Source of the DNA: Flavobacterium ranwuense | Lineage (GTDB): Bacteria > Bacteroidota > Bacteroidia > Flavobacteriales > Flavobacteriaceae | Reading direction: 5' to 3' | Length of the DNA stretch: 64,000 bases | Assembly: GCF_004349315.1 (NCBI RefSeq) | Contig: NZ_SMLH01000002.1 | Location: 411,156 to 475,155 of the forward strand | Shown: in pieces, positions 34,522 through 54,510 of the stretch | How positions within the stretch are numbered: the stretch's first letter is position 1 | Layout: every line of letters starts with the position of its first letter | Made by a program: the position numbers and the translations under genes | The notes under the pieces: generated by a model | What the model was told of the DNA's origin: nothing | Databases searched by the model: none | The model's input: the letters and a program-made list of their open reading frames with translations, nothing else

Positions 34522-35520
34522 TTACAAAGAATTTCTAATGATTAAAGCGCTCTTATTTTCTATTTGTTCTTTTTTTCCTTTCAAAATCATTTGGGATAAA
34601 ATTTTCCCCATGGCCACAAAATTTGTCGAAATGGTTGTTATTCCGTTTTCTACCACTTTTTTCAATGGAGTTTCGTTGTAGGAGATAATTCCGTAATCGT
34701 TCCCCAATTTCAAATTTTGTAGTTTTGATTTTTCTATAACGGCCACCAAATCCCTGTCGTTGGGGATAATGTACACTTCGCCAATTGTGATTTCCCTATC
34801 GACAAATTCCGGAATTACCTGATATTCGAAAGAGAAATCATGACAGAAATTGATAAAGCCTTCCTTCATTCCTAACGGTTCGCGAAATCCAGGGAAAATC
34901 AAGATCAGTTTCTCATATTTATTTAAATGGGATTTACCTTTTATTAAAGCATCATAAATGTCTTTTTTATGATTTTGATAAACCGCAGGGAAGGATTCTA
35001 ATTCGGGATTGGTTTGGTCCAATATAATCACCTCGTTTACCGGTAGGGTTTTAATAATTGAAGCGGCATCTGGTAAATTGGTTGGCATTATGATGTATTT
35101 GGTATAGTTACCGTTGCTTTCATTAATTAATTTTCTAAACATTTCGATGTTAAAGTGATGAAAATAGATGTCTACCTGAACATCCTTTCCAGTATTCTTT
35201 AAAAATGAATTATAAATATCTTCTTTGAAACTGTTCAATTCGTCAAACAACAGGAATATTTTTTGTTTTATGGTTATCTCTACGCTCTTTACATAGTAGC
35301 CTTTGCCTAGAATGGCATAGATGATACCTCTTTTTTTCAACTCCTCATACGCTTGTAAAACAGTGTCTCGGGATAATGAAAATTCCAAACAGAGCTTGTT
35401 TATCGAGGGAAGCCGCTCGCCTTTTATCAGTTTTTCATTTTCAATAGCCTTCTCAATTGATAAAATAATTTGCCTGTATTTGGGTATGCCGAGATTATTT
35501 TGAATAGAAATGATTTTCAT
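34522..35520 (-). CDS. GntR-family regulator with a periplasmic-binding-protein-like effector domain
   Basis: The 332-residue protein has an N-terminal GntR winged helix (about residues 8-75; GERLPSINKLCLEFSLSRDTV is cut across its recognition helix) and a C-terminal LacI/AraR-like sugar-binding domain (about 85-330, ending ISYNETPLKKVVENGITTIST). This combination is the AraR-type GntR subgroup that senses free sugars. It is divergent from galM, with a 103-bp shared control region that contains the operator-like element at 35555-35573. Galactose or a derivative is the likely effector. Confidence 0.9.
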   Translation of the reverse strand: MKIISIQNNLGIPKYRQIILSIEKAIENEKLIKGERLPSINKLCLEFSLSRDTVLQAYEELKKRGIIYAILGKGYYVKSVEITIKQKIFLLFDELNSFKEDIYNSFLKNTGKDVQVDIYFHHFNIEMFRKLINESNGNYTKYIIMPTNLPDAASIIKTLPVNEVIILDQTNPELESFPAVYQNHKKDIYDALIKGKSHLNKYEKLILIFPGFREPLGMKEGFINFCHDFSFEYQVIPEFVDREITIGEVYIIPNDRDLVAVIEKSKLQNLKLGNDYGIISYNETPLKKVVENGITTISTNFVAMGKILSQMILKGKKEQIENKSALIIRNSL

Positions 35521-35554
35521 AATAAGAAATGATTTTTGTGCAAGTTACAAAAAA

Positions 35555-35573
35555 CCGGTAGGTACTGGTATAT
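35555..35573 (+). promoter_or_regulatory. Operator-like element, copy 1 (galM promoter)
   Basis: CCGGTAGGTACTGGTATAT differs at two of 19 positions from the element upstream of the GH2 beta-galactosidase gene. It contains two direct half-sites (C[C/T]GGTA) exactly 10 bp apart, one helical turn. It starts 37 bp before a TAATTTTG box (35592-35599) and lies next to the divergent GntR gene, the presumed binder. Confidence 0.65.
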
Positions 35574-35591
35574 TTTTTTTGAAATTTAGTA

Positions 35592-35599
35592 TAATTTTG
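35592..35599 (+). promoter_or_regulatory. -7 promoter box of the galM-galK-galT-symporter operon
   Basis: TAATTTTG fits the TAnnTTTG consensus of Bacteroidetes promoters and lies 24 bases before the galM ATG. No good TTG is found at the usual -33 distance; the operator-like element occupies that region. Confidence 0.5.
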
Positions 35600-35623
35600 A
35601 ATTTCATTTTTCTTAATAAAACA

Positions 35624-36673
35624 ATGAAAATAAAACAAGAATCCCATTTTATTACCAATTCCGAAACAAAATTATTTGGTTTAATGCCGGATGGCGAAGC
35701 AATTTCCGCTTACCAAATTTCCAATAAAAACGGAATCAAATTAGAAGTTATCAATTATGGTGCTACGGTTAGTTCGTTGAAAATCCCACTGAAAAATGGC
35801 GGTGTTGTAGATGTCGTTTTAGGCTTTGACAATTTAGAAGCCTACCTGAAATCATTCGATCTGGAAAGCGCACCATATCTGGGAGCAACTGTCGGAAGAT
35901 TTGCAGGAAGAATTGGCGATGGGACTTTTAGCTTGAATGATAAAATATTCCATCTCAATAAAAACAACAATAAGCATTCGCTTCACGGAGGTACTATTGG
36001 CTTTAGCCAAGTAGTGTGGAAGGTAAAAAACGTAAATTATGGAGAAAATCCCTCCATAACCTTGACCTATCTTAGTCCAAATGATGAAGAAAATTACCCA
36101 GGAGATCTGTCTGTGGAGTTAACCTATACCTTGTCTGAGCAGAACGAGCTGATTATTGAATACAGCGCAACAACAACTGAGGATACTATTGTGAATTTGA
36201 CACATCACAGTTATTTTAATCTCAACGGACACGATTCAGAGGTACTGAGCCAAGAAATGAGCATCAGCGCCGATAAAGTATTGGAGACTACAAAAGAGAA
36301 TATTCCAACAGGAATATTTTTGGATTTAGCCAATTCTCCTTTTGATTTTTCATTATCCAAAAATTGTCCTGCTATAATTGATACCACTTTTGTTTTAAGC
36401 AAGGAAAAAGAAGTAGTGGTATCACTTTATAGTCCAAAAAATAGTCTAAAAATGACTGTTTATACGGATCAGCCAGCAGTTCATATTTATGTTGGAGGGA
36501 ATTGCGGAACTATAAAAGGAAAAGAAAAAGTGTTGTACCATTCATCCAGTGGTATCTGTTTTGAAACACAAAATTTCCCGGACGCTCCAAATCAAGCACA
36601 TTTCCCAGATGCAGTCCTCAAAAAAGGAGAAACGTATTGTCATAAGACCAGCTATAAATTTGAAATTTTTTAA
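35624..36673 (+). CDS. galM: Aldose 1-epimerase (galactose mutarotase)
   Basis: I use the ATG at 35624 because sequence upstream of it contains the promoter and operator elements. The 349-residue protein has the GalM catalytic set: H121 in KHSLHGG, H195 in THHSYFNL and the general base E314 in ICFETQNFPDAP. It interconverts beta- and alpha-D-galactose so that galactokinase receives its substrate. No signal peptide is seen, so it is cytoplasmic. It is the first gene of galM-galK-galT-symporter. Confidence 0.93.
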   Translation: MKIKQESHFITNSETKLFGLMPDGEAISAYQISNKNGIKLEVINYGATVSSLKIPLKNGGVVDVVLGFDNLEAYLKSFDLESAPYLGATVGRFAGRIGDGTFSLNDKIFHLNKNNNKHSLHGGTIGFSQVVWKVKNVNYGENPSITLTYLSPNDEENYPGDLSVELTYTLSEQNELIIEYSATTTEDTIVNLTHHSYFNLNGHDSEVLSQEMSISADKVLETTKENIPTGIFLDLANSPFDFSLSKNCPAIIDTTFVLSKEKEVVVSLYSPKNSLKMTVYTDQPAVHIYVGGNCGTIKGKEKVLYHSSSGICFETQNFPDAPNQAHFPDAVLKKGETYCHKTSYKFEIF

Positions 36674-36701
36674 AGAAAAATACTCTTATATTTACTAAAT
36701 A

Positions 36702-37868
36702 ATGAATGAAATTTTAATACATAAAACGATAAATCATTTTCAAGAAAAATTTGGTTCGGCACCAGAAAAAGTAGTTCTTTCTCCGGGCAGAATCAATATT
36801 ATTGGAGAACATATAGATTATAATGACGGTTATGTTTTGCCTGCGGCTATCGACAAAATTATCTGTTTTGCTTTCGAAAAAAATAATTCAAATCAATCCA
36901 GAATAATTGCCATTGATCTTGACGATGAATTTGAAATAGATTTGGCGGATCTAGTTGAATTGAACGAAAAAGTTTGGACAAATTATCTTCGTGGTGTTAT
37001 CAACCAGTTGAAAATTAATGGGTTTGTTTTTGAAGGTTTTAATTGCGTTTTTAGCAGCAATATTCCCGTTGGTTCTGGATTGTCCTCATCGGCAGCCTTA
37101 GAATGTGGTTTCTTATATGGAATAAACGAGCTTTTCAATTTGGACATAAAACCAATTGATATTGCCTTGATGGGACAAAAGGCGGAACATTGGGTAGGAA
37201 TCAATTGCGGTATAATGGATCAGTTTTCGAGTGTCTTGGGGCAAGAAAACAAAGTGATAAAAATTGATTGCCGAACGTTGGAATTTGAATACCACGATGC
37301 GAATTTCAAGGATTATTCTCTAATCTTATTTGACAGCAATGTGAAACATTCTTTGTTTACTTCGGCTTACAATAAAAGAAGGGAAGAATGCGAAGAAGGA
37401 CTGGCAATCATTAAAAATAATTTTCCTGAGGTGGGCAGTTTTAGGGACTGTAGCAAAAGTCAGGTTTTAAGTTTGAAAGACCAGATGAGTGAAGAAGTGT
37501 TCAAAAGATGCTATTTTGTGGTAAAAGAAATTGGTCGTGTTGTCAAAGCTTGTGAAGCCTTGGATAACGGCAAAATTGAAGTTTTAGGGCAACTGATGTT
37601 CGAAACGCATGAAGGATTGTCCAAAGAATATGAAGTGAGCTGTGATGAATTGGATTTTTTGGTTAATATTGTCAAAAGTGAAGAAGCCGTGATTGGATCT
37701 CGACTTATGGGTGGCGGTTTTGGAGGCTGTACCATAAATTTAGTAAAAAAAGGACATGAAGAAGATATTAAAAATAGACTTTCGAAACTGTACGATCACG
37801 CATTTGGAATAGAATTAAAAAACTATGATGTCAAAATTGGAAAGGGTGCATCACTTTACAAACAATAA
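36702..37868 (+). CDS. galK: Galactokinase
   Basis: The 388-residue GHMP kinase has the galactokinase signature GRINIIGEHIDY (29-40), the ATP-binding motif PVGSGLSSSAALE (122-134), MDQFSS with the catalytic Asp, and the C-terminal MGGGFGGCTINLV. It phosphorylates alpha-D-galactose to galactose-1-phosphate. It starts 28 bp after galM, and its stop codon overlaps the galT start by one base (TAATG), so the two are translationally coupled. Confidence 0.96.
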   Translation: MNEILIHKTINHFQEKFGSAPEKVVLSPGRINIIGEHIDYNDGYVLPAAIDKIICFAFEKNNSNQSRIIAIDLDDEFEIDLADLVELNEKVWTNYLRGVINQLKINGFVFEGFNCVFSSNIPVGSGLSSSAALECGFLYGINELFNLDIKPIDIALMGQKAEHWVGINCGIMDQFSSVLGQENKVIKIDCRTLEFEYHDANFKDYSLILFDSNVKHSLFTSAYNKRREECEEGLAIIKNNFPEVGSFRDCSKSQVLSLKDQMSEEVFKRCYFVVKEIGRVVKACEALDNGKIEVLGQLMFETHEGLSKEYEVSCDELDFLVNIVKSEEAVIGSRLMGGGFGGCTINLVKKGHEEDIKNRLSKLYDHAFGIELKNYDVKIGKGASLYKQ

Positions 37869-38923
37869 TGAAAATGAAGAATTTCGATATAAATGAAGAC
37901 CCGCACAGGCGTTATAATCCATTAATCAACGAATGGGTTTTGGTTTCTCCGCATCGTGCTAAACGTCCTTGGCAAGGTCAGAACGAAACAGTTGCTTCTG
38001 ATGTCTTACCAGAATACGACCCAACTTGTTATTTATGTCCGGGAAATTTACGCGCTAATGGAATGACAAATCCGGATTATGAAGCCAGTTTTGTTTTCGA
38101 AAATGATTTTGCTGCACTAAAGCAAGAGAAGATTTTTTTTGAGAACAGTACCAAAGAGACTTTTTTCAAAGCAAAACCCGAGAGAGGTATTTCAAGAGTG
38201 GTTTGCTTTTCGCCAAAGCATAATCTTACATTGCCAGAAATGACGATAGATGGCATTAAGGATATAATCCAGACTTGGCAAAAAGAATACATCGATTTAG
38301 GCAAGGTTGATTATATTAATTATGTTCAGATTTTTGAAAATAAAGGAAGTGTAATGGGATGTAGCAATCCACATCCACACGGTCAAATTTGGGCGCAATC
38401 GTCTCTGCCTACCGAAGTAGAGAAAACGCAAAATAACCTAAAAACTTATGACGATTTACACCAAAGCAATCTGTTGCAGGATTATTTGCAGGAGGAATTA
38501 AAACTGGACGAACGAATCGTTATCGAAAATACTCATTTTGTGGCACTCGTTCCTTTTTGGGCCATTTGGCCTTATGAAACGATGATTATCAGCAAGCGTC
38601 ATTTTGGAAAAATTACCGATTTTACTTCGGACGAAACTACCGCTTTCGCAACGATTTTGAAGCAATTGACGATCAAATACGATAATCTTTTCGAGACATC
38701 ATTCCCGTATTCGTCAGGAATTCACCAAGCTCCAACCGATGGAGAATCACATCCAGAATGGCAATTTCATATGCATTTTTATCCGCCTTTATTGCGTTCT
38801 GCTACCGTGAAAAAATTCATGGTGGGTTACGAAATGCTCGGCGAATCACAAAGGGATATTACGCCCGAAAAGAGCGCTTCGATATTGAAAGCCATTTCAG
38901 ATACGCATTATAAAAACAAATAA
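37868..38923 (+). CDS. galT: Galactose-1-phosphate uridylyltransferase
   Basis: The 351-residue HIT-superfamily enzyme has zinc-site cysteines CYLC (C54, C57) and the catalytic motif GCSNPHPHGQIWA, with H169 and H171. It transfers UMP from UDP-glucose to galactose-1-phosphate. GalE and a phosphoglucomutase, needed to complete the Leloir pathway, are not in the window. The gene is coupled to galK by an overlapping stop/start. Confidence 0.96.
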   Translation: MKMKNFDINEDPHRRYNPLINEWVLVSPHRAKRPWQGQNETVASDVLPEYDPTCYLCPGNLRANGMTNPDYEASFVFENDFAALKQEKIFFENSTKETFFKAKPERGISRVVCFSPKHNLTLPEMTIDGIKDIIQTWQKEYIDLGKVDYINYVQIFENKGSVMGCSNPHPHGQIWAQSSLPTEVEKTQNNLKTYDDLHQSNLLQDYLQEELKLDERIVIENTHFVALVPFWAIWPYETMIISKRHFGKITDFTSDETTAFATILKQLTIKYDNLFETSFPYSSGIHQAPTDGESHPEWQFHMHFYPPLLRSATVKKFMVGYEMLGESQRDITPEKSASILKAISDTHYKNK

Positions 38924-38948
38924 ATCAATTAACTTTTAAACCGAAATT

Positions 38949-40622
38949 ATGCATAAAACATTGTCAACCAATGATTACATTGTTTTTTTCCTCTATTTCA
39001 TAACCATTGTTGGTTATGGATTGTGGATTTACAACCGAAAAAAGAAAGCAGAAGCCAGCAGTAAAGATTATTTTCTTGCTGAAGGTTCATTAACATGGTG
39101 GGCAATTGGTGCCTCTTTGATTGCCAGTAATATTAGTGCCGAGCAATTTATAGGAATGAGCGGGAGTGGTTTCAAATTAGGATTGGCCATTGCAACCTAT
39201 GAATGGATGGCGGCATTAACCTTGGTTTTTGTAGCAATATTTTTTATGCCGGTGTACCTGAAAAATAAAATTTCGACCATGCCACAATACTTAAACCAGC
39301 GTTACAATGGTAATGTTGCTATGATTATGGCTGTTTTCTGGTTGTTACTTTACGTATTAGTCAATTTAACATCGATTCTCTATTTAGGTGCACTTGCCGT
39401 GAGTAGTATTTCAGGTTTAAATATTACCCTTTGTATGATTTTCTTGGCTCTTTTTGCTGTGATGATAACCCTTGGAGGAATGAAAGTAATTGGATATACT
39501 GATGTTGTTCAAGTGTTTTTCTTGATTTTAGGAGGTCTGGCAACTACTTATTTGGCACTTAATTTGGTTTCTGAAAAATTCGGAACGACTGGAGTGATCA
39601 ACGGATTTAATTTAATGACTGAAAAAGCAGATGGCCATTTTCAGATGATTTTTGATAAATCAAATCCGAATTATATGGATCTTCCCGGATTATCAGTATT
39701 AATAGGAGGGATGTTAATTATGAATTTTAATTACTGGGGTTGTAATCAATATATAACACAACGAGCCCTTGGAGCTGATTTAAAAACGGCCAGAAGTGGT
39801 ATTTTGTTTGCTGCGTTCTTAAAATTATTAATGCCAATTATTGTAGTGTTACCTGGTATTGCTGCTTATGTTCTTTATCAAAATGGAAGTTTTCAAACAG
39901 AATTATTACAAGATGGAAGTTTGAATCCTGACCGTGCTTACCCAGTATTGTTGAATTTGTTACCTACAGGATTAAAAGGGCTTTCATTTGCGGCTTTGAC
40001 CGCAGCTATTGTTGCTTCGTTGGCAGGAAAAGCAAATAGTATTGCCACTATTTTTACTTTAGATGTTTATAAGAAAAAATTAAACATTGAAGCAAGTGAG
40101 CAAAAATTAGTAAACATTGGGAAAATTACCATTATTGCGGCTATGATTATTGCCGTTATTGTTGCGCCCTTTTTAGGGATTGACAAAAAAGGAGGTTTTC
40201 AATACATTCAAGAATATACCGGTTTTGTAAGTCCAGGTGTTTTTGCCATGTTTATTTTAGGATTCTTTTGGAAAAAAACCACATCTAATGCAGCTATGTT
40301 TGCTATGATTGGCGGTTTCTTAATGTCGATAGTATTCAAATTCATGCCTCATTTTGTTGATTTGTCATTCCTAAATGGCATGGGCTTTTCAGTGCCAAAT
40401 GCAGAAGGTGTTTACGAAATTCCATTCATGGATCGTATGGGATTTGTCTTTTTGATATGTGTAATCGGAATGTATGTTATAAGTATTTATGAAACACAAA
40501 GAGGTGTTAAAACAAATGGCTTGGATGTAGATAAATCTATGTTTAAAGTTTCACCAGGGTTTACTGTAGGGTCTTTAATTATAGTTGCTGTCCTAGCTGC
40601 TTTGTATACCTTTTTCTGGTAA
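38949..40622 (+). CDS. Na+/sugar symporter (SSS family, SGLT-like), probable galactose uptake
   Basis: The 557-residue protein has about 14 membrane segments and the SSS family features KDYFLAEGSLTWWAIGASLIASNIS (cut across the first helices), a YWGCNQYITQRALGA segment typical of SGLT-type sugar transporters, and FAALTAAIVASLAGKANS for the Na+ site. It carries a hexose with sodium across the inner membrane. Galactose is inferred, since it is the last gene of the galactose operon, 25 bp after galT and followed by a terminator. Confidence 0.92.
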   Translation: MHKTLSTNDYIVFFLYFITIVGYGLWIYNRKKKAEASSKDYFLAEGSLTWWAIGASLIASNISAEQFIGMSGSGFKLGLAIATYEWMAALTLVFVAIFFMPVYLKNKISTMPQYLNQRYNGNVAMIMAVFWLLLYVLVNLTSILYLGALAVSSISGLNITLCMIFLALFAVMITLGGMKVIGYTDVVQVFFLILGGLATTYLALNLVSEKFGTTGVINGFNLMTEKADGHFQMIFDKSNPNYMDLPGLSVLIGGMLIMNFNYWGCNQYITQRALGADLKTARSGILFAAFLKLLMPIIVVLPGIAAYVLYQNGSFQTELLQDGSLNPDRAYPVLLNLLPTGLKGLSFAALTAAIVASLAGKANSIATIFTLDVYKKKLNIEASEQKLVNIGKITIIAAMIIAVIVAPFLGIDKKGGFQYIQEYTGFVSPGVFAMFILGFFWKKTTSNAAMFAMIGGFLMSIVFKFMPHFVDLSFLNGMGFSVPNAEGVYEIPFMDRMGFVFLICVIGMYVISIYETQRGVKTNGLDVDKSMFKVSPGFTVGSLIIVAVLAALYTFFW

Positions 40623-40683
40623 AAAATAATTTCAAGTATGTGGAATTAATTTAAAATCACATCATTTTTGCCATTAAAAATAG

Positions 40684-40717
40684 AGGCATTGAGCTTAATA
40701 AACTTAATGCCTTTTTT
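40684..40717 (+). terminator. Terminator of the galactose operon
   Basis: AGGCATT (40684-40690) pairs with AATGCCT (40706-40712), extended by weaker pairs, and is followed by a T tract to 40717. It lies 62 bases after the symporter stop. Confidence 0.75.
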
Positions 40718-40862
40718 AATAAAAAGGATTGCTTTATAATACCTCCACAACTGATACCAGATTTGTTTTATGTAATTTAAAAAACATAGTTCTAACCAAA
40801 GACAAGGATGCCGTACAGATTTTAAAACTGTTTTTGTGATATAATTATTAAAGAAATAAATA

Positions 40863-42413
40863 ATGAAAGTGTTTAAAATTTCCGTTATTCTGGTTGTTTT
40901 ATCGTGCGGTTTTTCGACCAATGTATTGGCGCAAAACAAAGCGGAATCTACCAAAAGACCCAATATTGTCATTATCATTTCAGATGACCACGCCTATCAG
41001 GCCATCAGTGCTTATGGCAATAATTTGGTGCAAACTCCCAATATTGACCGTATTGCCAAAGAAGGGGTTTTATTCAACAAAGGATATGTGACGAATTCTA
41101 TCTGCGGTCCAAGTCGTGCCGTGATTTTAACCGGCAAATACAGCCATAAAAATGGTTTTAAGGATAATGAAAACTCCAGATTTGATGGGAGCCAGGATTC
41201 ATTCGTGAAACAATTAGGTGCTTCGGGTTATCAAACTGCCTGGATTGGAAAATGGCATTTGGAAACAAAACCACAAGGGTTTGATTTTTGGCAAATATTA
41301 CCCAACCAAGGACAATATTACAATCCGGAATTCGATATGATGGATGGCAGCAAGAAACGAAATGAAGGCTATGTTTCAGATGTTATAGAAGACGTTTCAG
41401 AAAATTGGTTGAACAATCGCGATCAGGAGAAGCCTTTTTGTTTGGTCATTGGACATAAAGCAACGCACCGAACTTGGATACCGGACACCCAAGATTTGGG
41501 AAAATTTGATACCGTTACTTTTCCTTTACCGGCTAATTTTTATGATAATTATAAAGACCGTGAAGCGGCTAAGGTTCAGGATATGTCTATCTCCACAACG
41601 ATGCAGATGGGTTATGACCTAAAAATGTTCGGAGGTGAAAATGAAGCCAATAAAGATGGTAATATTGCGCGAATGAATCTAGAACAGCGACAAAAATTCG
41701 ATGCTTATTATTCCCCGGTAGAAGCGGATTTGAAAGCCAAAAACTTGAGTGGTAAAACATTAGTAGAATGGAAATACCAGCGATACATGCGCGACTACAT
41801 GAGTACAGCTGTGTCTTTGGACAGGAACATCGGGCGTACCTTGGATTATTTGGATAAAAATGGCTTGACAGAAAATACGATTGTCATCTACCTTTCGGAT
41901 CAGGGTTTTTATCTGGGAGAACACGGTTGGTTTGATAAACGTTTTATTTACGAAGAATCTTTTCGAACTCCAATGATGATGCGTTATCCGGGAGTTATAA
42001 AACCTGGAACGGTATCAAATAATTTTGTTATGAATCTGGATATTGCACCAACGATGCTCGATGCGGCAGGAGTTTCCATTCCAAAAGATGAACAAGGACA
42101 ATCCATGTTACCTTTATTTAAAGATAAAAAAGCAAAGGGACGTGATGCAATTTATTATCATTATTATGAAAATGGAGAACATTCCGTTTCGCCTCATTTT
42201 GGCGTAAGAACTAAGCGTTATAAATTGATTCGTTTCTACAAAAGAGTAAGTTCTTGGGAGCTTTATGATTTGCAAAAAGATCCAAATGAAATGCATAATT
42301 TGTATGGAAAAAAAGGGTACGAAAAGATCACCAATTACATGAATCTGCAACTTAAAAAGTTGATTGATCAATATGATGATCAGGATGCAAAACAGCTATT
42401 GAAAGGAGATTAG
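40863..42413 (+). CDS. Secreted sulfatase resembling N-acetylglucosamine-6-O-sulfatases
   Basis: The 516-residue enzyme has a signal peptide ending VLAQ (about 1-24), the metal site IIISDDHAYQ (D41/D42), the formylglycine site C81-G-P-S-R85, GKWHLETKPQGFD and the second metal motif SDQGFYLGEHGWFDKR. The CGPSRAVILTGKYSHKNGF and GEHGWFDKRF blocks resemble the S1_11 group (GlcNAc-6-sulfatases such as Bacteroides BT4656). It would remove 6-sulfate from GlcNAc of mucin-type or keratan-type chains. It has its own terminator and stands apart from the other two sulfatases and from FGE, which lie on the other arm. Confidence 0.88.
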   Translation: MKVFKISVILVVLSCGFSTNVLAQNKAESTKRPNIVIIISDDHAYQAISAYGNNLVQTPNIDRIAKEGVLFNKGYVTNSICGPSRAVILTGKYSHKNGFKDNENSRFDGSQDSFVKQLGASGYQTAWIGKWHLETKPQGFDFWQILPNQGQYYNPEFDMMDGSKKRNEGYVSDVIEDVSENWLNNRDQEKPFCLVIGHKATHRTWIPDTQDLGKFDTVTFPLPANFYDNYKDREAAKVQDMSISTTMQMGYDLKMFGGENEANKDGNIARMNLEQRQKFDAYYSPVEADLKAKNLSGKTLVEWKYQRYMRDYMSTAVSLDRNIGRTLDYLDKNGLTENTIVIYLSDQGFYLGEHGWFDKRFIYEESFRTPMMMRYPGVIKPGTVSNNFVMNLDIAPTMLDAAGVSIPKDEQGQSMLPLFKDKKAKGRDAIYYHYYENGEHSVSPHFGVRTKRYKLIRFYKRVSSWELYDLQKDPNEMHNLYGKKGYEKITNYMNLQLKKLIDQYDDQDAKQLLKGD

Positions 42414-42432
42414 TTTTATTTCTGGACTTACA

Positions 42433-42495
42433 AAAACGGTATAGTTTATAGTATTTTATCTTTTACAGGATGAATACTATAAACTATGCCGTTTT
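42433..42495 (+). terminator. Long hairpin terminator after the sulfatase
   Basis: Two 23-base arms (42433-42455 and 42473-42495) pair along their full length with one G-U type mismatch, and a 17-nt loop separates them. A T-rich end follows. It starts 19 bases after the sulfatase stop. Confidence 0.8.
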
Positions 42496-42632
42496 GCTTT
42501 TGATAATGGATAAATTCATATGATTTGCTATTGGCTTTAATCATCAATATGAAATTTGTAGAATCCTTGTAAAAATAGTATTTCGGGATTCTTTTGAATT
42601 AAGTAGTTTTTTTGCACATGCCATAAAAAAAA

Positions 42633-42651
42633 CTGGTAGGCACTGGTATAT
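42633..42651 (+). promoter_or_regulatory. Operator-like element, copy 2 (GH2 beta-galactosidase promoter)
   Basis: CTGGTAGGCACTGGTATAT matches copy 1 at 35555 in 17 of 19 bases plus a shared AAAA on the 5' side. It has the same CTGGTA direct repeat with 10-bp period and starts exactly 37 bp before a TATTTTTG box (42670-42677), as copy 1 does before its TAATTTTG box. Confidence 0.65.
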
Positions 42652-42669
42652 ATTTTAGAAGAACTGTTA

Positions 42670-42677
42670 TATTTTTG
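42670..42677 (+). promoter_or_regulatory. -7 promoter box of the GH2 beta-galactosidase gene
   Basis: TATTTTTG fits TAnnTTTG. The predicted transcript would have a leader of roughly 90-170 bases, depending on which start codon is used. Confidence 0.45.
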
Positions 42678-42852
42678 AATTTTGGTTTTATAAAAAAGAA
42701 TCAAATAGTAACATTCAAGCAGATGAACCAAAGAAAAACCGAATAGGCATGAATGGTCACAATACATAAAAACTAAAATGGATATAAATATAATGATGAA
42801 AACAATGTGGAGCAAAAGTTTGAAAACGAACGGGATAACCGTTTTTGGGAAC

Positions 42853-45800
42853 ATGAGAAAAGTAAAAATGGCAATCATTGCCTTGTTATTATCTGTAAAT
42901 GTTTTTGCACAGTTGCCAGCCGAGTTGCTAAATCCTGAAATCATTTCCTTGAACCGAATGCCAATGCGAAACAGTGCTTTTGGTTTTGAAAACATGGAAA
43001 AAGCCAAACAATACGACAGAGAAAAGTCGGCTAACTTTTTTTCATTAAATGGAAGTTGGAAATTTAATTGGGTACAAGATCCGAACCAGCGTCCGCAAAA
43101 TTTTTTCGAAACTACTTATGATGATACCAAATGGACTAATTTTCGTATACCAGCGAGTTGGGAAGTGAATGGGTATGGTTTGCCAATTTATGTGAACCAG
43201 CCTTATGATTTTGCCGGTCATAATTTGCGTTACGCAAAAATGAATCCGCCATTTGATATTCCTGCCAATAACAATCCGGTAGGTTCTTATCGTAAAAAAA
43301 TCAATTTGCCTGCCAATTGGAAAGGAAAGCAGGTTTTTATTCATGTGGGTAATGCAAAATCTTGTCTGTTTGTTTGGGTAAACGGAAAGAAAGTGGGCTA
43401 TAGTGAAGACAGCAAAATGGCTGCCGAATTTGATATCACCAATTTTTTGAAAGCAGGAGAGAATTTAATCGCTTTTCAAGTATATCGTTGGAGTGACGCC
43501 AGTTATTTAGAGTGTCAGGATATGTTCCGTTTTTCAGGAATTGAAAGAGATGTTTTTTTATATGCCACAGAGAAGTTGAATATCCGTGACACTAAAATTA
43601 TCAGCACACTTGATGACACGTATACCAATGGATTGCTTAGCATTAATACCGAAATTAGTAGCTATAAAAGAGAAAAGGGATTATATAGTAAGAAGGACAG
43701 TTTGACGGTTGAAGTAAGTTTGGAAGATGCCAAAGGAAATGTGGTTTATCAGGATAAAACTAAGGATTTTAAAACCATATTAGGGAAGTATAAAACAAAT
43801 ATTGAATTTAAAACAACTATAAAAAACGTACAAAAATGGACTGCGGAAACGCCTTATTTGTATCGTTTGTACATTATTTTAAAAAATGCAAAAGGGGTAG
43901 TGATTGAAGTGGTGCCGCTTCGCATTGGTTTCAAAAAAATAGAAATTAAGGGAGCTGATTTTTTAGTTAATGGCAAAAGAGTTTTCATAAAAGGGGTTAA
44001 CCGACATGAACATCATCCAAGAAATGGGCACACGCTCAGCAAGGAAGATATGAGAAAGGACATGGAGATGATGAAGAAATTGAATATCAATGCAGTTCGT
44101 CATTCTCATTATCCGCCGGATCCTTATTGGATGGAACTTTGCGATGAATTTGGTTTGTATGTTGTTGATGAAGCTAATATTGAATCACATGGTTTGGGTT
44201 ATGATTTAGATGTAACACTGGCAAACAATCCACTGTGGAAACAATCGCATCTGCAACGTATCCAACGTATGTATGAAAGAGACAAGAATCATGCAAGTGT
44301 AGTAACTTGGTCTTTAGGAAACGAAGCCGGTGACGGTACTAATTTTTATGCTGCATACGATTGGTTGAGAAAGGAAACGACTTTGCCAATCCAGTATGAA
44401 AGAGATATTAATTATGAAAAACCGAATGATACGCATTATTCTGAGATTTTTTGTCCGCAATATATGTCTCCGGACGCTTTGTTGAGCTATTCAAAAAGTG
44501 ATGCCAGAATACCAAATATCCAAAGTGAATACGCCCACATTATGGGGAATAGCTTAGGGAATTTCCAAGATTATTGGGATGTTGTAGAAAACAACCCAAA
44601 ACTGCAGGGAGGATTTATTTGGGAATGGATTGACCAATCTATCGATACAGTTAAAAATGGTAAACGCATCATGGCTTATGGTGGAGATTTTCCATTGGAA
44701 GGACCAGTTGATGAAAATTTAAGCGATAATAACTTCTGTGTAAAAGGAGTGGTTACGGCATACCGTGAAATTACACCAATGGCTTTGGAAGTGAAAAAAG
44801 CACACCAAAACATTAAAACGAAATTTGTTGGTAACAACACCATCACAATTAAAAACGGTTTTTTCTTTAAAAATCTGGATAATGTAATGATGCGTTGGGT
44901 ATTGATGGAAAATGGAATTGCCAAAGAAAACGCTACCATTAACACGATTTCATTGGAGCCACAAGCAGAAAAAGAATTTAAATTAGCCATCAAAACGGTT
45001 CAAAAGACCGATAAAGAATACCAGTTGAATGTGTATTATTCGCTAAAAACCGAAGAGCCTTTCTTACCTAAAGGATATGAAATTGCTGAGGATCAGTTAG
45101 CATTGAAAACACTTCCGGCAACTGTTTTTACACCAAGTTCAAAAAAGGCGTTACAATTAAAAGAAACAAAAGAACAGTGTATCATTTTAGGAGATAAATT
45201 CGAAGTTGTTTTCGATTTGAAAAAAGGAATTTTGTCCGGTTATAGTGTCAAAGGTGAGCAATTTATTGAACAAGGACCAAAACCTTCTTTCTGGAGAGCT
45301 CCAACAGACAACGACATTGGTGCTGGATTTAATACGAGCCTAAGAAAATGGAGAAATGCGTATGATAATGCTACCGAAATGCAAGCCGTTGTTTCAAAGA
45401 ATACTGACGGTTCGGTTCAGGTAAAATTCACAACGAAATTGGTTGACGGTGATGCCACACACCAACAAGTATTTACGGTTTATGGTGACGGAAATATTAA
45501 AGTTGATAATGAATTTACTGCCATCAAAGGAAAAAATCCTTTGTTGTTGAGAGCAGGAAATGATTTGGTTATCAATAAAAATTTCAATACAATTAATTGG
45601 TACGGTCGTGGTCCGGGTGAGAATTATTGGGACAGAAAAACCAATACTTTCATCGGTCAATTCAAGCAATCAGTGGATGAGCAATATTATCCTTATGCCC
45701 GACCTCAAGAAAGTGGTAATAAAACAGAAGTGCGCTGGGTAAGTTTCAGTAACGCAAAGGGAAGAAAAATAGAATTTGCATTTGTGAACAATTTATTGAG

Positions 45801-46020
45801 TTTTTCGGCCTTGCCTTATAATTTGGATGATTTAGATCCTGAAGCTCAAAAGAAACAATACCATAGCGGGGAACTCAATAAAAGAAACGAAATCTACCTG
45901 CATATGGATTTGCAACAAACCGGTTTACAGGGAATAGACAGTTGGGGCTCTATGCCAATGGAGAAATATAGAATTCCTTTTAAAAATTACAACTATAGCT
46001 ATTGGATGAAATTTGAGTAA
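42853..46020 (+). CDS. GH2 beta-galactosidase (LacZ-type)
   Basis: I place the start at 42853, giving a compact signal peptide (MRKVKMAIIALLLSVNVFAQ); an in-frame ATG at 42778 adds 25 residues. The ~1055-residue protein has the five-domain LacZ layout: a sugar-binding jelly roll, an Ig-like domain, the TIM barrel with acid/base E491 (SLGNEAGDG) and nucleophile E559 (QSEYAHIMGN), a second Ig-like domain, and the C-terminal beta-sandwich (GRGPGENYWDRK). It cleaves terminal beta-galactose in the periplasm. It is probably induced with the galactose operon through the shared operator-like element. Confidence 0.93.
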   Translation: MRKVKMAIIALLLSVNVFAQLPAELLNPEIISLNRMPMRNSAFGFENMEKAKQYDREKSANFFSLNGSWKFNWVQDPNQRPQNFFETTYDDTKWTNFRIPASWEVNGYGLPIYVNQPYDFAGHNLRYAKMNPPFDIPANNNPVGSYRKKINLPANWKGKQVFIHVGNAKSCLFVWVNGKKVGYSEDSKMAAEFDITNFLKAGENLIAFQVYRWSDASYLECQDMFRFSGIERDVFLYATEKLNIRDTKIISTLDDTYTNGLLSINTEISSYKREKGLYSKKDSLTVEVSLEDAKGNVVYQDKTKDFKTILGKYKTNIEFKTTIKNVQKWTAETPYLYRLYIILKNAKGVVIEVVPLRIGFKKIEIKGADFLVNGKRVFIKGVNRHEHHPRNGHTLSKEDMRKDMEMMKKLNINAVRHSHYPPDPYWMELCDEFGLYVVDEANIESHGLGYDLDVTLANNPLWKQSHLQRIQRMYERDKNHASVVTWSLGNEAGDGTNFYAAYDWLRKETTLPIQYERDINYEKPNDTHYSEIFCPQYMSPDALLSYSKSDARIPNIQSEYAHIMGNSLGNFQDYWDVVENNPKLQGGFIWEWIDQSIDTVKNGKRIMAYGGDFPLEGPVDENLSDNNFCVKGVVTAYREITPMALEVKKAHQNIKTKFVGNNTITIKNGFFFKNLDNVMMRWVLMENGIAKENATINTISLEPQAEKEFKLAIKTVQKTDKEYQLNVYYSLKTEEPFLPKGYEIAEDQLALKTLPATVFTPSSKKALQLKETKEQCIILGDKFEVVFDLKKGILSGYSVKGEQFIEQGPKPSFWRAPTDNDIGAGFNTSLRKWRNAYDNATEMQAVVSKNTDGSVQVKFTTKLVDGDATHQQVFTVYGDGNIKVDNEFTAIKGKNPLLLRAGNDLVINKNFNTINWYGRGPGENYWDRKTNTFIGQFKQSVDEQYYPYARPQESGNKTEVRWVSFSNAKGRKIEFAFVNNLLSFSALPYNLDDLDPEAQKKQYHSGELNKRNEIYLHMDLQQTGLQGIDSWGSMPMEKYRIPFKNYNYSYWMKFE

Positions 46021-46290: not shown

Positions 46291-48891
46291 ATGGATTATT
46301 TTAAAAAACACAGTTGGCTTCATTTTGTAAAGATTATTATGCTGTTTGTTGCAGCAAATACCAATTCCCAGATTAAAAAAACAACATTGCCTGATAGTTT
46401 GTTCTCTACTTACTATCATCAGCGGGCTTCCCATTTTAGAACCCTTCCGATAACAAAAGATGATATTGTATTCTTAGGAAACAGCATTTCTGATGGAGCG
46501 GAATGGAGTGAATTATTTGCCGACAATCGCGTGAAAAACCGTGGAATAAGCGGTGATATAAGCGCCGGAGTCCTGAACCGAATCGATGAAATTATTATCA
46601 GGAAACCAGCAAAAGTTTTTTTGCTGATAGGAGTTAATGACTTGTCAAGAAGTACCGGAACCGATAGTATTTTTAAAAATATCACAAAAATTGCTTCCTA
46701 TTTAAAACAGGAATCTCCTTCGACAAAATTGTACGTGCAAAGTATATTGCCCGTAAATGATGTCTATAAAAAATTTGGAAGTCACACCAGTAAAGGAGAA
46801 CAAATAAGACAGCTAAATGCTAATCTAAAAAAGAATGCTGTGGCTTATCATTATACTTATATTGATTTGCACACTTCCTTTTGTGATGCCAATGGGAAGT
46901 TAATAAAAGGGTTTACCAATGACGGTTTGCACCTCAAGGGAGATGGTTATTTATTATGGAAGCATTTGGTTTACCCGTATGTTTTTGATCTGGAATCTAA
47001 ACCTTCTTTATTGCCAAAACCACAACAGCTGAAATGGAATGCTGGTGCTTTCCCATTGTCTGTTGCAACGACAATTCTTGTGGATAATCCTGCTTTAGTG
47101 AAGGACGCTTTGGTCTTGAAAAATGCTATGGAGCAAAAAGGACTGAATGTGAAATTAGCCGACAAAGTATCGGATGCAGCAAATTACATTCAGCTTCGTT
47201 TAGGGAATGTTAGTGCACCACAAAACCAATCCGAAGCCTACCATCTGGAAACAGCAACGGATAAAATAGTGCTTACTGCCAATACTTCTCAGGGAATTTT
47301 TAATGGTATTCAAACTTTATTGCAGTTAATGCGTGACAATGTTTTTGTGGATGCTTCTGAAATTACAGATTGGCCAGCCTTTGCGTGGCGTGGATTTATG
47401 GTTGATGTAGGAAGAAATTACCAGTCGGTTAAACTGTTGAAGCAACAGATTGATGTGATGGCAGGGTATAAGCTAAATATTTTTCACTTTCATCCTACCG
47501 AGGATATTGCCTGGCGTTTACAAAGCAAGCTATACCCACAGTTAACAGACCCAGAATATATGCTTCGTGATAAAGGCGAATATTATACGGAGAGCGATTT
47601 AAAAGAGCTAATTAAGTATTGTAAAGACCGATACATAACTTTAGTTCCGGAGATTGATATGCCGGGTCACAGTGGCGCATTCAAAAGAGCCATGGGAGTA
47701 GATATGCAAAGCGATGCGGGCTTAGAAATTGTAAAAAACATAATTAAGGAATTTTGCACCACCTATGATGTACCGTATTTGCATTTAGGTGCCGATGAAG
47801 TAAAAATTACGAATCAGAAATTTTTGCCCGAAGTTATTGCCTTAACAGAAAGTTTAGGTAAAAAAGTAATCGGATGGGAACCAGGCGGGAATTTTAGCGA
47901 TGGGGTAATTCGCCAGCTTTGGATGGAAGGTGCCACAAAGGTAAGTAAGAACAAAAACATAAAATATCTAGATTCAAGGCATTTGTATTTAAACCATATG
48001 GATCCCTTAGAAAGTGTAGTTACCATTTTTAATCGCCAAATATGCAATTTAACTGAAGGTAACGAAAATGCTTTGGGTGGTATTGTATGCGTATGGAATG
48101 ATAGGGCTGTAGCCAATGAAGAAGATGTTATGACAATGAATCCAGTTTATCCGGGCATGTTAACTTTTGCAGAACGCTCTTGGCAAGGTGGCGGTAATGC
48201 GGGTTGGACAGCAACCATTGGTCAACCGGAAACCGAAAGAGCCAAAGCCTTTATGGAGTTTGAAAACCGTTTGTTAGATCAAAAACAGCACTATTTTAAA
48301 GCCATGCCTTTTAATTATGTTAGGCAGGCTAATTTAGTTTGGGATATCTATGGACCTTTTGATAATAAAGGTGATTTAACCAAAGCTTTTGCCCCCGAAA
48401 AGGCAAAATTTAATGCATCAAAAGAAAAACCAATGTACAAAGCCACTGGCGGCACTTTAGTAATGAGACATTGGTGGGCACCGCAAATTTCGGGCGTTAT
48501 TGAGGAGCCAAAAGAAAACACCACTTGGTATGCCCAAACCCAAATTTGGAGTGATGAAGACAAACAGCAAGAATTTTGGATAGGTTTTAATAATTTATCC
48601 CGTTCCATGAACACCGATTCGCCAAATGCAGGTACTTGGAATAATTTAAAAAGTTTGGTTTGGGTAAATAATGGGTTGGTTAGTCCGCCAGTTTGGAAAC
48701 ATACCAACCAAAAAGGTAATTTAGAAATCCCCCTGATTGATGAAGGATACGAATTTAGAGAACCAACAAAAATTACTTTAAAAAAGGGATGGAATACAGT
48801 TAAAGTAAAACTGCCGGTAGGTTCATTTAAAGGCCTCAATTGGCAAAATCCAGTAAAGTGGATGTTCACTTTCGTTGAAGTAATTGAATAA
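46291..48891 (+). CDS. SGNH esterase-GH20 beta-N-acetylhexosaminidase fusion
   Basis: The 866-residue protein begins with a short signal-like hydrophobic segment (about 12-25). An SGNH hydrolase domain (about 30-235) follows, with GNSISDG (S65), GVND (N116) and DGLHL (D211, H214), so its catalytic residues are intact. A GH20b-type N-domain (about 240-365) and the GH20 barrel (about 366-690) carry the catalytic Asp-Glu pair D502-E503 in HLGADEV; a further domain runs to the end. The GH20 part removes terminal beta-GlcNAc or GalNAc. The esterase part could remove acetyl groups from the same chains. It starts a five-gene row ending at the terminator near 56.7 kb. Confidence 0.92.
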   Translation: MDYFKKHSWLHFVKIIMLFVAANTNSQIKKTTLPDSLFSTYYHQRASHFRTLPITKDDIVFLGNSISDGAEWSELFADNRVKNRGISGDISAGVLNRIDEIIIRKPAKVFLLIGVNDLSRSTGTDSIFKNITKIASYLKQESPSTKLYVQSILPVNDVYKKFGSHTSKGEQIRQLNANLKKNAVAYHYTYIDLHTSFCDANGKLIKGFTNDGLHLKGDGYLLWKHLVYPYVFDLESKPSLLPKPQQLKWNAGAFPLSVATTILVDNPALVKDALVLKNAMEQKGLNVKLADKVSDAANYIQLRLGNVSAPQNQSEAYHLETATDKIVLTANTSQGIFNGIQTLLQLMRDNVFVDASEITDWPAFAWRGFMVDVGRNYQSVKLLKQQIDVMAGYKLNIFHFHPTEDIAWRLQSKLYPQLTDPEYMLRDKGEYYTESDLKELIKYCKDRYITLVPEIDMPGHSGAFKRAMGVDMQSDAGLEIVKNIIKEFCTTYDVPYLHLGADEVKITNQKFLPEVIALTESLGKKVIGWEPGGNFSDGVIRQLWMEGATKVSKNKNIKYLDSRHLYLNHMDPLESVVTIFNRQICNLTEGNENALGGIVCVWNDRAVANEEDVMTMNPVYPGMLTFAERSWQGGGNAGWTATIGQPETERAKAFMEFENRLLDQKQHYFKAMPFNYVRQANLVWDIYGPFDNKGDLTKAFAPEKAKFNASKEKPMYKATGGTLVMRHWWAPQISGVIEEPKENTTWYAQTQIWSDEDKQQEFWIGFNNLSRSMNTDSPNAGTWNNLKSLVWVNNGLVSPPVWKHTNQKGNLEIPLIDEGYEFREPTKITLKKGWNTVKVKLPVGSFKGLNWQNPVKWMFTFVEVIE

Positions 48892-48981
48892 GAATCGTAG
48901 TAAAGCTTTTAACTGAGCGATTGGATTTTTTGAGTAAAAAGAATAAATTTAAAAGCTTTCAAAATAAAAAAATATTTTAAA

Positions 48982-50652
48982 ATGAAGAATATCTTTTTAC
49001 TGTTAGTCCTTTTTGTAGGTATAACTACAAAGGCACAAACCAAGCAACAAAGTCCGGCGTTTATCAGTTTTGTAAGCAGTAATGCCCGTTTTGCAAAAGA
49101 TGTAAAACCTACAATTTCTCAAATTAATACTTGGGGAACCACGGCTTGGAAAGGCGAAAAAATTCATACCCAAATTTTGGTTTGGGCCGATAAAGATATT
49201 GCTAAACTGACTGTTGGTATCAGTGATCTGAAAAATAATGCCGGAGCTCAGATTGCGAAAACCAACGCTAAAACCGGTTTTGTGCATTATGTTATTACCG
49301 ACGAATTTGGTGGAGGCTGCGGTTATCGAAAACCCGAAGATTTCAAATCCTCATTAGTGGCGGATCCTATTGATTGGGCATCTTCTGTTGCAGTGAAAAA
49401 AAAGGAATTACATCCAATTTGGTTGAGTATAAGCATTCCTGCTAACACAATTGCAGGGCAATACAAAGGAATAGTTACTATAAACGCAGGGAGAAAATAC
49501 AGCTTACCTATCGCCATAAATGTGCTCGAGCATACACTTCCAGCTGTTGATAAATGGAAATTTGATTTGGATCTTTGGCAACATCCCGCCGCCATCGCCA
49601 GAGTGCATAAAGTGGAATTATGGAGCAACGAACATTTTGAAAAAATGAGACCTTATTATACGATGCTTGCCAATGCAGGTCAAAAATGCATTACAACCAG
49701 TATCATGCAGGAACCATGGGGACATCAAACCTATGACGATTTTCCAAGCCTTATAAAATGGGTTAAGAAAAAAGATGGCAACTGGTATTATGATTACAGT
49801 TTATTTGATAAGTATGTTTCTTTTGTAATGAGTTGCGGGATTACCAAACGCATCAATTGTTACAGTATGGTGCCGTGGAAATTGTCTTTTCAATATTATG
49901 ACGAAAACCTTTTAAAAAATACCGAACTTGTGGCCAAAATTGGTTCTGAGGAATACAATCGTTTTTGGTCTTCTATGATAAAAGATTTTACAAAACATCT
50001 AAAAGAGAAAGGGTGGTTTGGTATCAGTACAATTGCCATGGACGAAAGACCAATGAAAGACATGCAGACGGTTATCAAATTATTGAAAGATATTGATCCG
50101 GATTGGAAAATTGCATTAGCTGGGAATTACCATCCTGAAATTGAGAAAGATATTTTTGATTATAGCGTTGCATCCCGATTTCAGTTTGATGCAGTGACTT
50201 TGAAAGAGCGTATCGCATTAGGAAAACCAAGCACATGGTACACTTGCTGCGAAGAAAACTATCCTAACGGTTTTACTTTTTCGCCACCTGTGGAGCACGT
50301 ATGGATGGGTTGGTACGCTGCCGCAAAAGGATTTACGGGGTATTTGCGTTGGGCTTATAACAGTTGGCCTCAAAATCCATTGACGGACAGTCGTTTTACG
50401 GCTTGGCCTGCTGGGGATACTTTTCAGGTATATCCTGGACCCATGACATCCATCCGTTTTGAAAAATTGATTGAAGGAATACAGGATTTCGAAAAAATAC
50501 ACATTCTTCAGGAAGGATTTAAACAATCAGGAAATCAGACGAAAATAGAAGAGCTGAATCAGCTGTTAAGTACTTTTGATTTGAAAATGTTAAAAGAGAT
50601 TCCTTCAGAAAAAACAATCGATGAAGCAAAATCAAAATTGAATAAATTCTAA
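48982..50652 (+). CDS. DUF4091 glycoside hydrolase-like protein (GH123-related)
   Basis: The 556-residue protein has a signal peptide (MKNIFLLLVLFVGITTKAQ), a beta-rich N-terminal domain (about 25-185), a TIM-barrel-like region (about 190-460) and a DUF4091 C-terminal part with GYLRWAYNSWPQNPL. An Asp-Glu pair (D354-E355 in IAMDERPM) stands where GH123 beta-N-acetylgalactosaminidases keep their substrate-assisted catalytic pair. Removal of beta-GalNAc is therefore plausible and would fit the neighbouring GH20, GH27 and GH95 enzymes. The assignment to GH123 proper is not certain. Confidence 0.7.
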   Translation: MKNIFLLLVLFVGITTKAQTKQQSPAFISFVSSNARFAKDVKPTISQINTWGTTAWKGEKIHTQILVWADKDIAKLTVGISDLKNNAGAQIAKTNAKTGFVHYVITDEFGGGCGYRKPEDFKSSLVADPIDWASSVAVKKKELHPIWLSISIPANTIAGQYKGIVTINAGRKYSLPIAINVLEHTLPAVDKWKFDLDLWQHPAAIARVHKVELWSNEHFEKMRPYYTMLANAGQKCITTSIMQEPWGHQTYDDFPSLIKWVKKKDGNWYYDYSLFDKYVSFVMSCGITKRINCYSMVPWKLSFQYYDENLLKNTELVAKIGSEEYNRFWSSMIKDFTKHLKEKGWFGISTIAMDERPMKDMQTVIKLLKDIDPDWKIALAGNYHPEIEKDIFDYSVASRFQFDAVTLKERIALGKPSTWYTCCEENYPNGFTFSPPVEHVWMGWYAAAKGFTGYLRWAYNSWPQNPLTDSRFTAWPAGDTFQVYPGPMTSIRFEKLIEGIQDFEKIHILQEGFKQSGNQTKIEELNQLLSTFDLKMLKEIPSEKTIDEAKSKLNKF

Positions 50653-50752
50653 TGACCTAAACCTTTCTTGGAGTCGAGAATGGACAGTTCATTTAGATAG
50701 GAGTGTTTATAAAATTCGGTCTCTATCTAATAAAAAACAAATAGTATAAGTA

Positions 50753-52003: not shown

Positions 52004-52004
52004 T

Positions 52005-54458: not shown

Positions 54459-54510
54459 AAACAAGTCCTGCATAAGTTTTAGAATTAACAAATTTATTAA
54501 ATACAGACCT

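What the first reader, a model, noticed from the sequence alone, without database searches (positions are those of the whole stretch)
35555..42677. Shared 19-bp operator with fixed geometry links the galactose operon and the GH2 beta-galactosidase
CCGGTAGGTACTGGTATAT (35555) and CTGGTAGGCACTGGTATAT (42633) match at 17 of 19 bases, plus a shared AAAA on the 5' side. Each contains a CTGGTA direct repeat with a 10-bp period. Each starts exactly 37 bp before a TAnnTTTG box (35592 and 42670). The identical spacing makes chance unlikely, and the missing -33 TTG suggests the element replaces or covers it. The divergent GntR protein is the obvious binder; a direct-repeat site would be unusual for GntR proteins, which mostly use inverted repeats. 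It may define a galactose regulon in this locus.
Basis: partly seen in the sequence, partly recalled or inferred. Interest (0 to 1): 0.75.

Follow-up and report, generated by a model that had tools for sequence, protein, structure and literature searches.

The report
Tandem operator of flavobacterial galactose genes
A 20-base repeated DNA element sits at the same distance before galactose-use genes in many flavobacteria, and it is likely the switch that a neighbouring sugar-sensing regulator (a GntR protein) uses to control them, predicted to turn them on when galactose is present.

Summary
In detail: both elements are where stated, each 37 bp before a TAnnTTTG box (shuffles: 0.02 such matches expected in the window). 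The element is a tandem of two 10-bp units, ACTRGTAGGT. It lies beside the gntR orthologue in 79 of 80 named loci and, in recognisable form, in 61 of 63 distinct loci from other genera. In 150 Flavobacterium genomes the exact motif occurs in 63 of 83 with a GntR match and 0 of 67 without. Exact copies away from gntR precede galMKT, galM-GH53 and SusC/D genes (five beside GH36); 13 of 14 keep the 37-38 bp spacing. The spacer sequence is poorly conserved. By promoter numbering the element is centred near -41 for target genes (an activator position) and near -26 for gntR (a repressor position), so I favour an activator that represses its own gene. Repression at both is not excluded; nothing was tested at the bench. 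I found no description of this regulon in the papers searched.

The parts
35554..35573 (+). operator 1: ACCGGTAGGT/ACTGGTATAT, between gntR and galM
   Evidence: conserved beside gntR orthologues
35592..35599 (+). -7 box TAATTTTG of the galM promoter, 37 bp from the operator's C
   Evidence: spacing 37 or 38 in 95 of 99 non-redundant Flavobacterium orthologues
35540..35547 (-). probable -7 box TAACTTGC (TAnnTTGY type) of the gntR promoter, 21 bp from the core on the gntR strand
   Evidence: read; such a box at 20-22 bp in 86 of 99 orthologues
34522..35520 (-). GntR-family regulator with a predicted LacI-type sugar-binding domain; likely binder
   Evidence: Pfam GntR; model and fold search
35624..36673 (+). 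galM, aldose 1-epimerase (likely target)
36702..37868 (+). galK, galactokinase (likely target)
37868..38923 (+). galT, galactose-1-phosphate uridylyltransferase (likely target)
38949..40622 (+). sodium:solute symporter, probable sugar transporter (likely target, same strand)
42632..42651 (+). operator 2: ACTGGTAGGC/ACTGGTATAT, before the GH2 gene
   Evidence: also before the GH2 gene of F. rhamnosiphilum, L046
42670..42677 (+). -7 box TATTTTTG of the GH2 promoter, 37 bp from the operator's C
42778..46020 (+). LacZ-type GH2 beta-galactosidase (likely target)
46291..56568 (+). same-strand glycosidase genes that may share the GH2 transcript: GDSL/GH20, GH123, GH27, GH95, GH2 (operon inferred from strand and gaps only)

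Best explanation
The element is a 20-bp operator made of two tandem ~10-bp units (ACTRGTAGGT) that sits 37 or 38 bp before the -7 box of galactose-related promoters in Flavobacterium, where it is likely bound by the GntR regulator encoded beside it, which is predicted to activate these promoters when a galactose-derived signal is present and to repress its own gene. Shown by sequence: motif, spacing, conservation, position beside gntR, distal copies at galactose and galactan genes, and absence of the exact motif from the sampled genomes without a GntR match. Inferred: that GntR is the binder, and that galactose or a derivative is the ligand (from the target genes and the LacI-type domain). Predicted from geometry only: with the -7 box at -12 to -5 the 20-mer spans about -50 to -31 (centre -40.5; 16-bp core centre -42.5), the class II activator position, while on the gntR side the core is centred near -26.5, where a bound protein would block polymerase.
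For: Beside gntR in 79 of 80 named loci, before galM in 71 of those 79. Exact motif in 63 of 83 genomes with a GntR match and 0 of 67 without (Fisher p 7e-25, not corrected for relatedness and partly a consequence of the motif lying beside gntR); reversed-pattern control 0 in every genome. Of the 20 matched genomes without the exact motif, 18 were fetched and 16 of these have a 15-17 of 18 match beside gntR. Of 14 exact copies away from gntR, 13 have a box at 37-38 bp (window). In G005 the galMKT operon keeps a site although gntR is on another contig. Operator 95% and spacer 50% pairwise identical in 84 sites with the box at 37. In L161 two divergent genes each have their own site facing their own box. 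In 20 loci of other genera the operator is turned towards gntR, with a box at 34-39 bp in 18. gntR-side box at 20-22 bp in 86 of 99. TTG around -33 in only 3 of 95 sites against about 25% of 150 other boxes.
Against: No binding, expression or ligand data. Relatives of known function (AraR, FucR, NanR) are to my recall repressors (NanR: abstract of PMC8012715). Four of 99 Flavobacterium sites lack the box (L017, L037, L047, L048), three of them in rather close relatives. In other genera only 19 of 41 forward-facing sites have a box at 34-38 bp, and 14 of 41 have one at the matching distance on the other side, 6 on both, so orientation is not strict there. Seven class-level loci at 40-47% identity lack the motif. 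One exact match lies inside an ORF (G073). The background set for -33 is small and partly related.
Confidence: 0.55

Rival explanations
1. GntR is a plain repressor: bound at -50 to -31 it would cover the -33 region of the target promoters and the spacer of its own promoter, and galactose would release it.
For: Characterised relatives (AraR, FucR; recalled) are repressors. In 70 of 95 Flavobacterium sites the second unit carries TATG at -33, so an embedded -33 element could by itself fix the spacing. The gntR-side position fits repression.
Against: In other genera the letters at -33 are mostly AGG (letters 17-19; A 0.82, G 0.79, G 0.92 of 61 sites) and the spacing of 34-39 bp still holds in 18 of 20 reversed loci. 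Exact spacing is not needed for steric repression.
Confidence: 0.35
2. The site is read as a GntR palindrome (ACYRGTA-GG-TACYRGT) and the tandem is only a by-product of ACYRGT being nearly self-complementary.
For: The core fits the GT-N4-AC consensus (passages of PMC4494728). In some other genera the arms are near-perfect (L236, read by eye) and boxes lie at 34-38 bp on both sides in 6 of 41 loci.
Against: In Flavobacterium letters 3-4/13-14 are TG/TG in 80 of 99 and the palindromic TG/CA in 0 of 99; tandem match averages 8.15 of 10, inverted match 4.98 of 8. Seven of 61 loci in other genera have the unit repeated 10 of 10. L156 has a third, weaker unit in register.
Confidence: 0.3
3. Another regulator, such as the ROK protein encoded at 32976-34205, binds the element.
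For: It is encoded next to gntR in this window.
Against: The motif follows gntR across genomes and genera. The presence of the ROK gene across genomes was not searched, so this rests on the link to gntR alone.
Confidence: 0.04

Closest known systems
AraR of Bacillus subtilis (GntR winged helix with LacI-type sugar domain; architecture and repressor role recalled, DNA-binding-domain structures listed)
   Same: Predicted domain order and a sugar-catabolic regulon; operators with a GT-N-AC core
   Different: AraR is a repressor with palindromic operators (recalled); here a tandem with fixed promoter spacing and a predicted activator position
ManR (BT2103) and FucR (BT1272) of Bacteroides thetaiotaomicron
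   Same: GntR-family monosaccharide regulators in the same phylum; ManR joins cytoplasmic sugar use with SusC/SusD genes (PMC3878776 passages)
   Different: Mannose and fucose, not galactose; the table of 11 monosaccharide regulators there lists none for galactose; their motifs were not seen by me
NanR of E. coli
   Same: GntR protein bound to tandem GGTATA repeats (abstract of PMC8012715); the units here share TGGTA
   Different: NanR is a repressor whose three dimers bind three repeats; it belongs to the FadR subfamily (PMC4494728 passages), whereas here Pfam finds no FadR-type domain and the fold search gives LacI-type matches
Class II activator promoters (CRP type, recalled)
   Same: Predicted operator centre near -41 and fixed spacing to the core promoter
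   Different: Different protein family and a different primary sigma factor; activation untested

Membership tests
GntR family, AraR-like architecture | N-terminal GntR winged helix | tested here: met
   Pfam GntR, residues 14-77, 38.2 bits against a cut-off of 27
GntR family, AraR-like architecture | C-terminal LacI/periplasmic-binding-type sugar domain | tested here: met
   Predicted model (pLDDT 89.6) matches LacI-family repressors best; Pfam Peripla_BP_3 is below its cut-off, so this rests on a model
GntR family, AraR-like architecture | Operator with a GT-Nx-AC core | tested here: met
   GT-AGGT-AC in operator 1 and the orthologue consensus; operator 2 has GT-AGGC-AC; consensus from PMC4494728
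GntR family, AraR-like architecture | Binds the operator and responds to a sugar | not testable with these tools
   Needs gel shift or footprint
Class II-type activator promoter | Operator centred near -41.5 at a fixed distance from the -7 box | tested here: met
   Predicted centre -40.5 (20-mer) or -42.5 (core) from box position; spacing 37 or 38 in 95 of 99; start sites not mapped
Class II-type activator promoter | Poor -33/-35 element | tested here: inconclusive
   TTG in 3 of 95 sites against about 25% of 150 background boxes, but TATG in 70 of 95
Class II-type activator promoter | Regulator contacts RNA polymerase and activates | not testable with these tools
   Needs gntR deletion and operator-shift reporters
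NanR-type (FadR subfamily) tandem binders | FadR-type (FCD) effector domain | tested here: not met
   No FCD match in Pfam at E 0.001; LacI-type fold matches instead
SusR/HTCS direct-repeat sites of Bacteroides | Two sites far apart: average 21 bp for HTCS, 67 or 77 bp between centres for SusR | tested here: not met
   Period here is 10 bp; distances from PMC3878776 passages

The most novel reading that the evidence does not exclude
A single oriented tandem operator, read head-to-tail by a LacI-domain GntR protein, activates Bacteroidota sigma-A promoters from -41 in place of the -33 element and represses the regulator's own promoter from -26, uniting the Leloir pathway and galactan and galactoside PULs in one monosaccharide-sensed regulon across the Flavobacteriaceae.
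Probability: 0.35. Interest if true: 0.65.

Novelty: new variant of a known kind. Interest (0 to 1): 0.5.

Why it matters
If true, control by a single sugar would tie cytoplasmic galactose use to galactan and galactoside degradation in an important group of polysaccharide degraders. It would also give a strictly spaced, probably inducible promoter element for Flavobacterium, and a testable case of how a one-component regulator works with the unusual primary sigma factor of Bacteroidota, whose -33 element is weak.

Tried and rejected
Tandem site as a trait of all paralogues: rejected. One set of paralogues (33-37% identity) has a perfect tandem AACAGAACGG x2 upstream in 14 of 24 loci examined; 10 of 24 do not. 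In another set a palindrome-like TGTAATCGATTACC is seen in 3 of 8 loci (by eye).

Strict orientation in every genus: rejected, see the two-sided loci.

The site at C19:91650 (2 mismatches) lies inside a gene for an ammonium-transporter-like protein (named from recall), and G073:C1:1316205 lies inside a 1761-aa ORF; neither has a box and both were treated as chance.

A viral-contig match (L309) has no similarity to any of the 17 window proteins tested and was dropped.

A terminator scan before the GH2 gene found none, so read-through from the sulfatase gene is not excluded.

Rows dropped before the counts: 197 loci given, 188 with an N-terminal GntR hit, 186 scoring at least 15 of 20 (L215 and L267 failed), 160 after removing identical 60-nt stretches: 99 Flavobacterium and 61 other. 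The 61 include one 40%-identity paralogue (L274). One search covered 67 loci, four of them second fetches of the same gene, so 63 distinct; 61 of 63 have a match, the lowest 15 of 20. Class-level loci without the site reach 11-13 by chance.

Literature: ten searches of open-licence PMC papers. I saw listings plus passages of seven papers (PMC3878776, PMC5698469, PMC4494728, PMC5507952, PMC9723704, PMC6847099, PMC5613140) and the abstract and outline of PMC8012715. None showed a GntR galactose regulator or this motif in Flavobacteriaceae. Subscription journals and RegPrecise were not searched.

Full report
What is there. The two elements are exactly as described. Adding one base gives a 20-bp tandem: ACCGGTAGGT/ACTGGTATAT at 35554-35573 and ACTGGTAGGC/ACTGGTATAT at 42632-42651. 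The first stands between gntR (34522-35520, minus) and galM-galK-galT-symporter. The second stands before a LacZ-type GH2 gene that heads a row of same-strand glycosidase genes (GDSL/GH20, GH123, GH27, GH95, GH2). The whole genome has two exact matches to ACYRGTAGGYACYRGTAT, one with a single mismatch, one with two, and 25 with three, no more than the control pattern gives overall (29 against 42), so only the first three are treated as sites. The third lies between a gene that resembles alpha-L-fucosidases (not scanned) and a calcineurin-like phosphoesterase gene, near a Pfam-confirmed alpha-L-fucosidase, and it too has a box at 37 bp.

Conservation. In 80 named loci that encode the regulator (74-97% identity), 79 have the motif with at most one mismatch beside gntR, and in 71 of those 79 the first long ORF downstream is galM. 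F. rhamnosiphilum (L046) also has the GH2 site at 37 bp. In 150 genomes of the genus the exact pattern ACYRGTAGGYRCYRGTAT was found 77 times in 63 genomes, and the reversed control not once. All 63 are among the 83 genomes with a GntR match; none of the 67 without a match has it. Of the 20 matched genomes without the exact motif, two have only paralogue-level matches; 18 were fetched and 16 of these have a near match, one is cut by a contig end, and one is a decayed gntR with no site. In other genera, 61 of 63 distinct loci have a recognisable tandem upstream of gntR, in seven of them a perfect repeat of ten letters. In a class-wide sample of 295 genomes, nine new loci were read: one of the same genus and one of another family keep the motif, seven at 40-47% identity do not.

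Regulon. Of the 77 exact sites 63 lie beside gntR and 14 elsewhere (my count from the lists). Thirteen of the 14 (the window's GH2 site and twelve) have a TAnnTTnG box at 37 or 38 bp; the fourteenth is inside an ORF. They precede galMKT away from gntR (G005), galM followed by two GH53-type genes (G030, G046, G094, G112), SusC/SusD beside a GH36-type gene (G006, G057, G063, G109, G121), another SusC/SusD pair (G102) and a gene without a Pfam match (G088).; GH53 and GH36 were confirmed by Pfam in one or two of these loci and by resemblance of the first residues in the others. In L161 the SusC and GH36-type genes each have their own site, one exact and one with two mismatches, facing opposite ways.

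Geometry. Among 99 non-redundant Flavobacterium sites beside gntR the box is at 37 or 38 bp in 95. The operator is 95% identical pairwise and the spacer 50% in the 84 with exactly 37, so distance is kept while sequence drifts. In 86 of 99 a TAnnTTGY or TAnnTTnG box also stands on the gntR side, 20-22 bp from the core; TAnnTTGY is a promoter type reported in F. psychrophilum (PMC9723704 passages). With the first T of the box at -12 (PMC6847099 passages) the 20-mer is centred at -40.5 for gal, and the core near -26.5 for gntR. In 20 loci of other genera the tandem is turned towards gntR, with galK downstream of gntR in 19 of the 20; 18 of these have a box at 34-39 bp. Of the 41 forward-facing loci in other genera, 19 have a box at 34-38 bp forward and 14 at the matching distance backward, six both, so there the element may serve both sides.

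Tandem or palindrome. ACYRGT is nearly its own complement, so the core can be read both ways, and it satisfies the GT-N4-AC consensus of GntR proteins (PMC4494728 passages). The discriminating letters favour the tandem in Flavobacterium: TG/TG in 80 of 99, TG/CA in 0 of 99, mean match 8.15 of 10 against 4.98 of 8. These rows share ancestry, so the counts are not independent. Some loci in other genera look more palindromic (L236).

The protein. Residues 14-77 match Pfam GntR. The model (20-sequence alignment, pLDDT 89.6, pTM 0.79) has LacI-family regulators as its best matches among solved structures, so a sugar sensor is likely; the ligand is inferred from the targets.

Mechanism. Fixed spacing at unrelated promoters, one site per promoter in L161 and a centre near -41 fit an activator that touches RNA polymerase; the gntR-side position fits autorepression. 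Repression at both remains possible, since the second unit carries TATG at -33 in 70 of 95 sites and relatives of known function are, to my recall, mostly repressors. The background for -33 is itself low (about 25% of 150 boxes).

Novelty. The kind, a GntR sugar regulator with a regulon, is known; ManR of B. thetaiotaomicron is a precedent for joining catabolism with SusC/SusD (PMC3878776 passages). The galactose regulon, the tandem element and its promoter geometry were not found in the ten searches listed under Tried and rejected.

Noticed in passing
window 10833-32383: Minus-strand gene set that looks like sialic acid and amino-sugar use: two BNR/sialidase-like proteins, a GlcNAc 2-epimerase family protein, a DHDPS-family (NanA-like) protein, a NagA-like amidohydrolase, sulfatases, SusC/SusD, with a ROK regulator next to it (SusC/SusD, kelch and sulfatase names there partly from recall). 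Together with the GH2-GH20-GH123-GH27-GH95 row this suggests use of host-type or mucin-like glycans.
   Followed up: partly
L201-L204, L280-L299: Paralogous GntR proteins have a perfect 20-bp tandem (AACAGAACGG twice), flanked by TTTAGCATA and TATGCTAAA arms in many, upstream in 14 of 24 loci; target genes not examined.
   Followed up: partly
L156 4071, minus strand: A third, weaker unit (GCTGGTTTAG) follows the two units in the same 10-bp register before a SusC gene.
   Followed up: no
L188 (genome G113): The gntR orthologue is decayed (four stop codons, N-terminal part not matched) and no operator is left in the 801 bases fetched: a single natural co-loss.
   Followed up: partly
L072, L120: Contigs titled Klebsiella pneumoniae and Bdellovibrio MAGs carry a 77-78% identical gntR with the same operator and box; the bins are probably mixed or mistitled.
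   Followed up: no
L017/L049, L047, L048: Rather close relatives (84-89% GntR identity) keep the operator, two with altered letters, but have no TAnnTTnG box at 37-38 bp; whether the gal operon is elsewhere there was not checked.
   Followed up: no
G000 C19:84735 (L155 8736): Third operator of the genome, one mismatch, before a calcineurin-like phosphoesterase gene in a stretch with fucosidase and hexosaminidase-like genes.
   Followed up: partly
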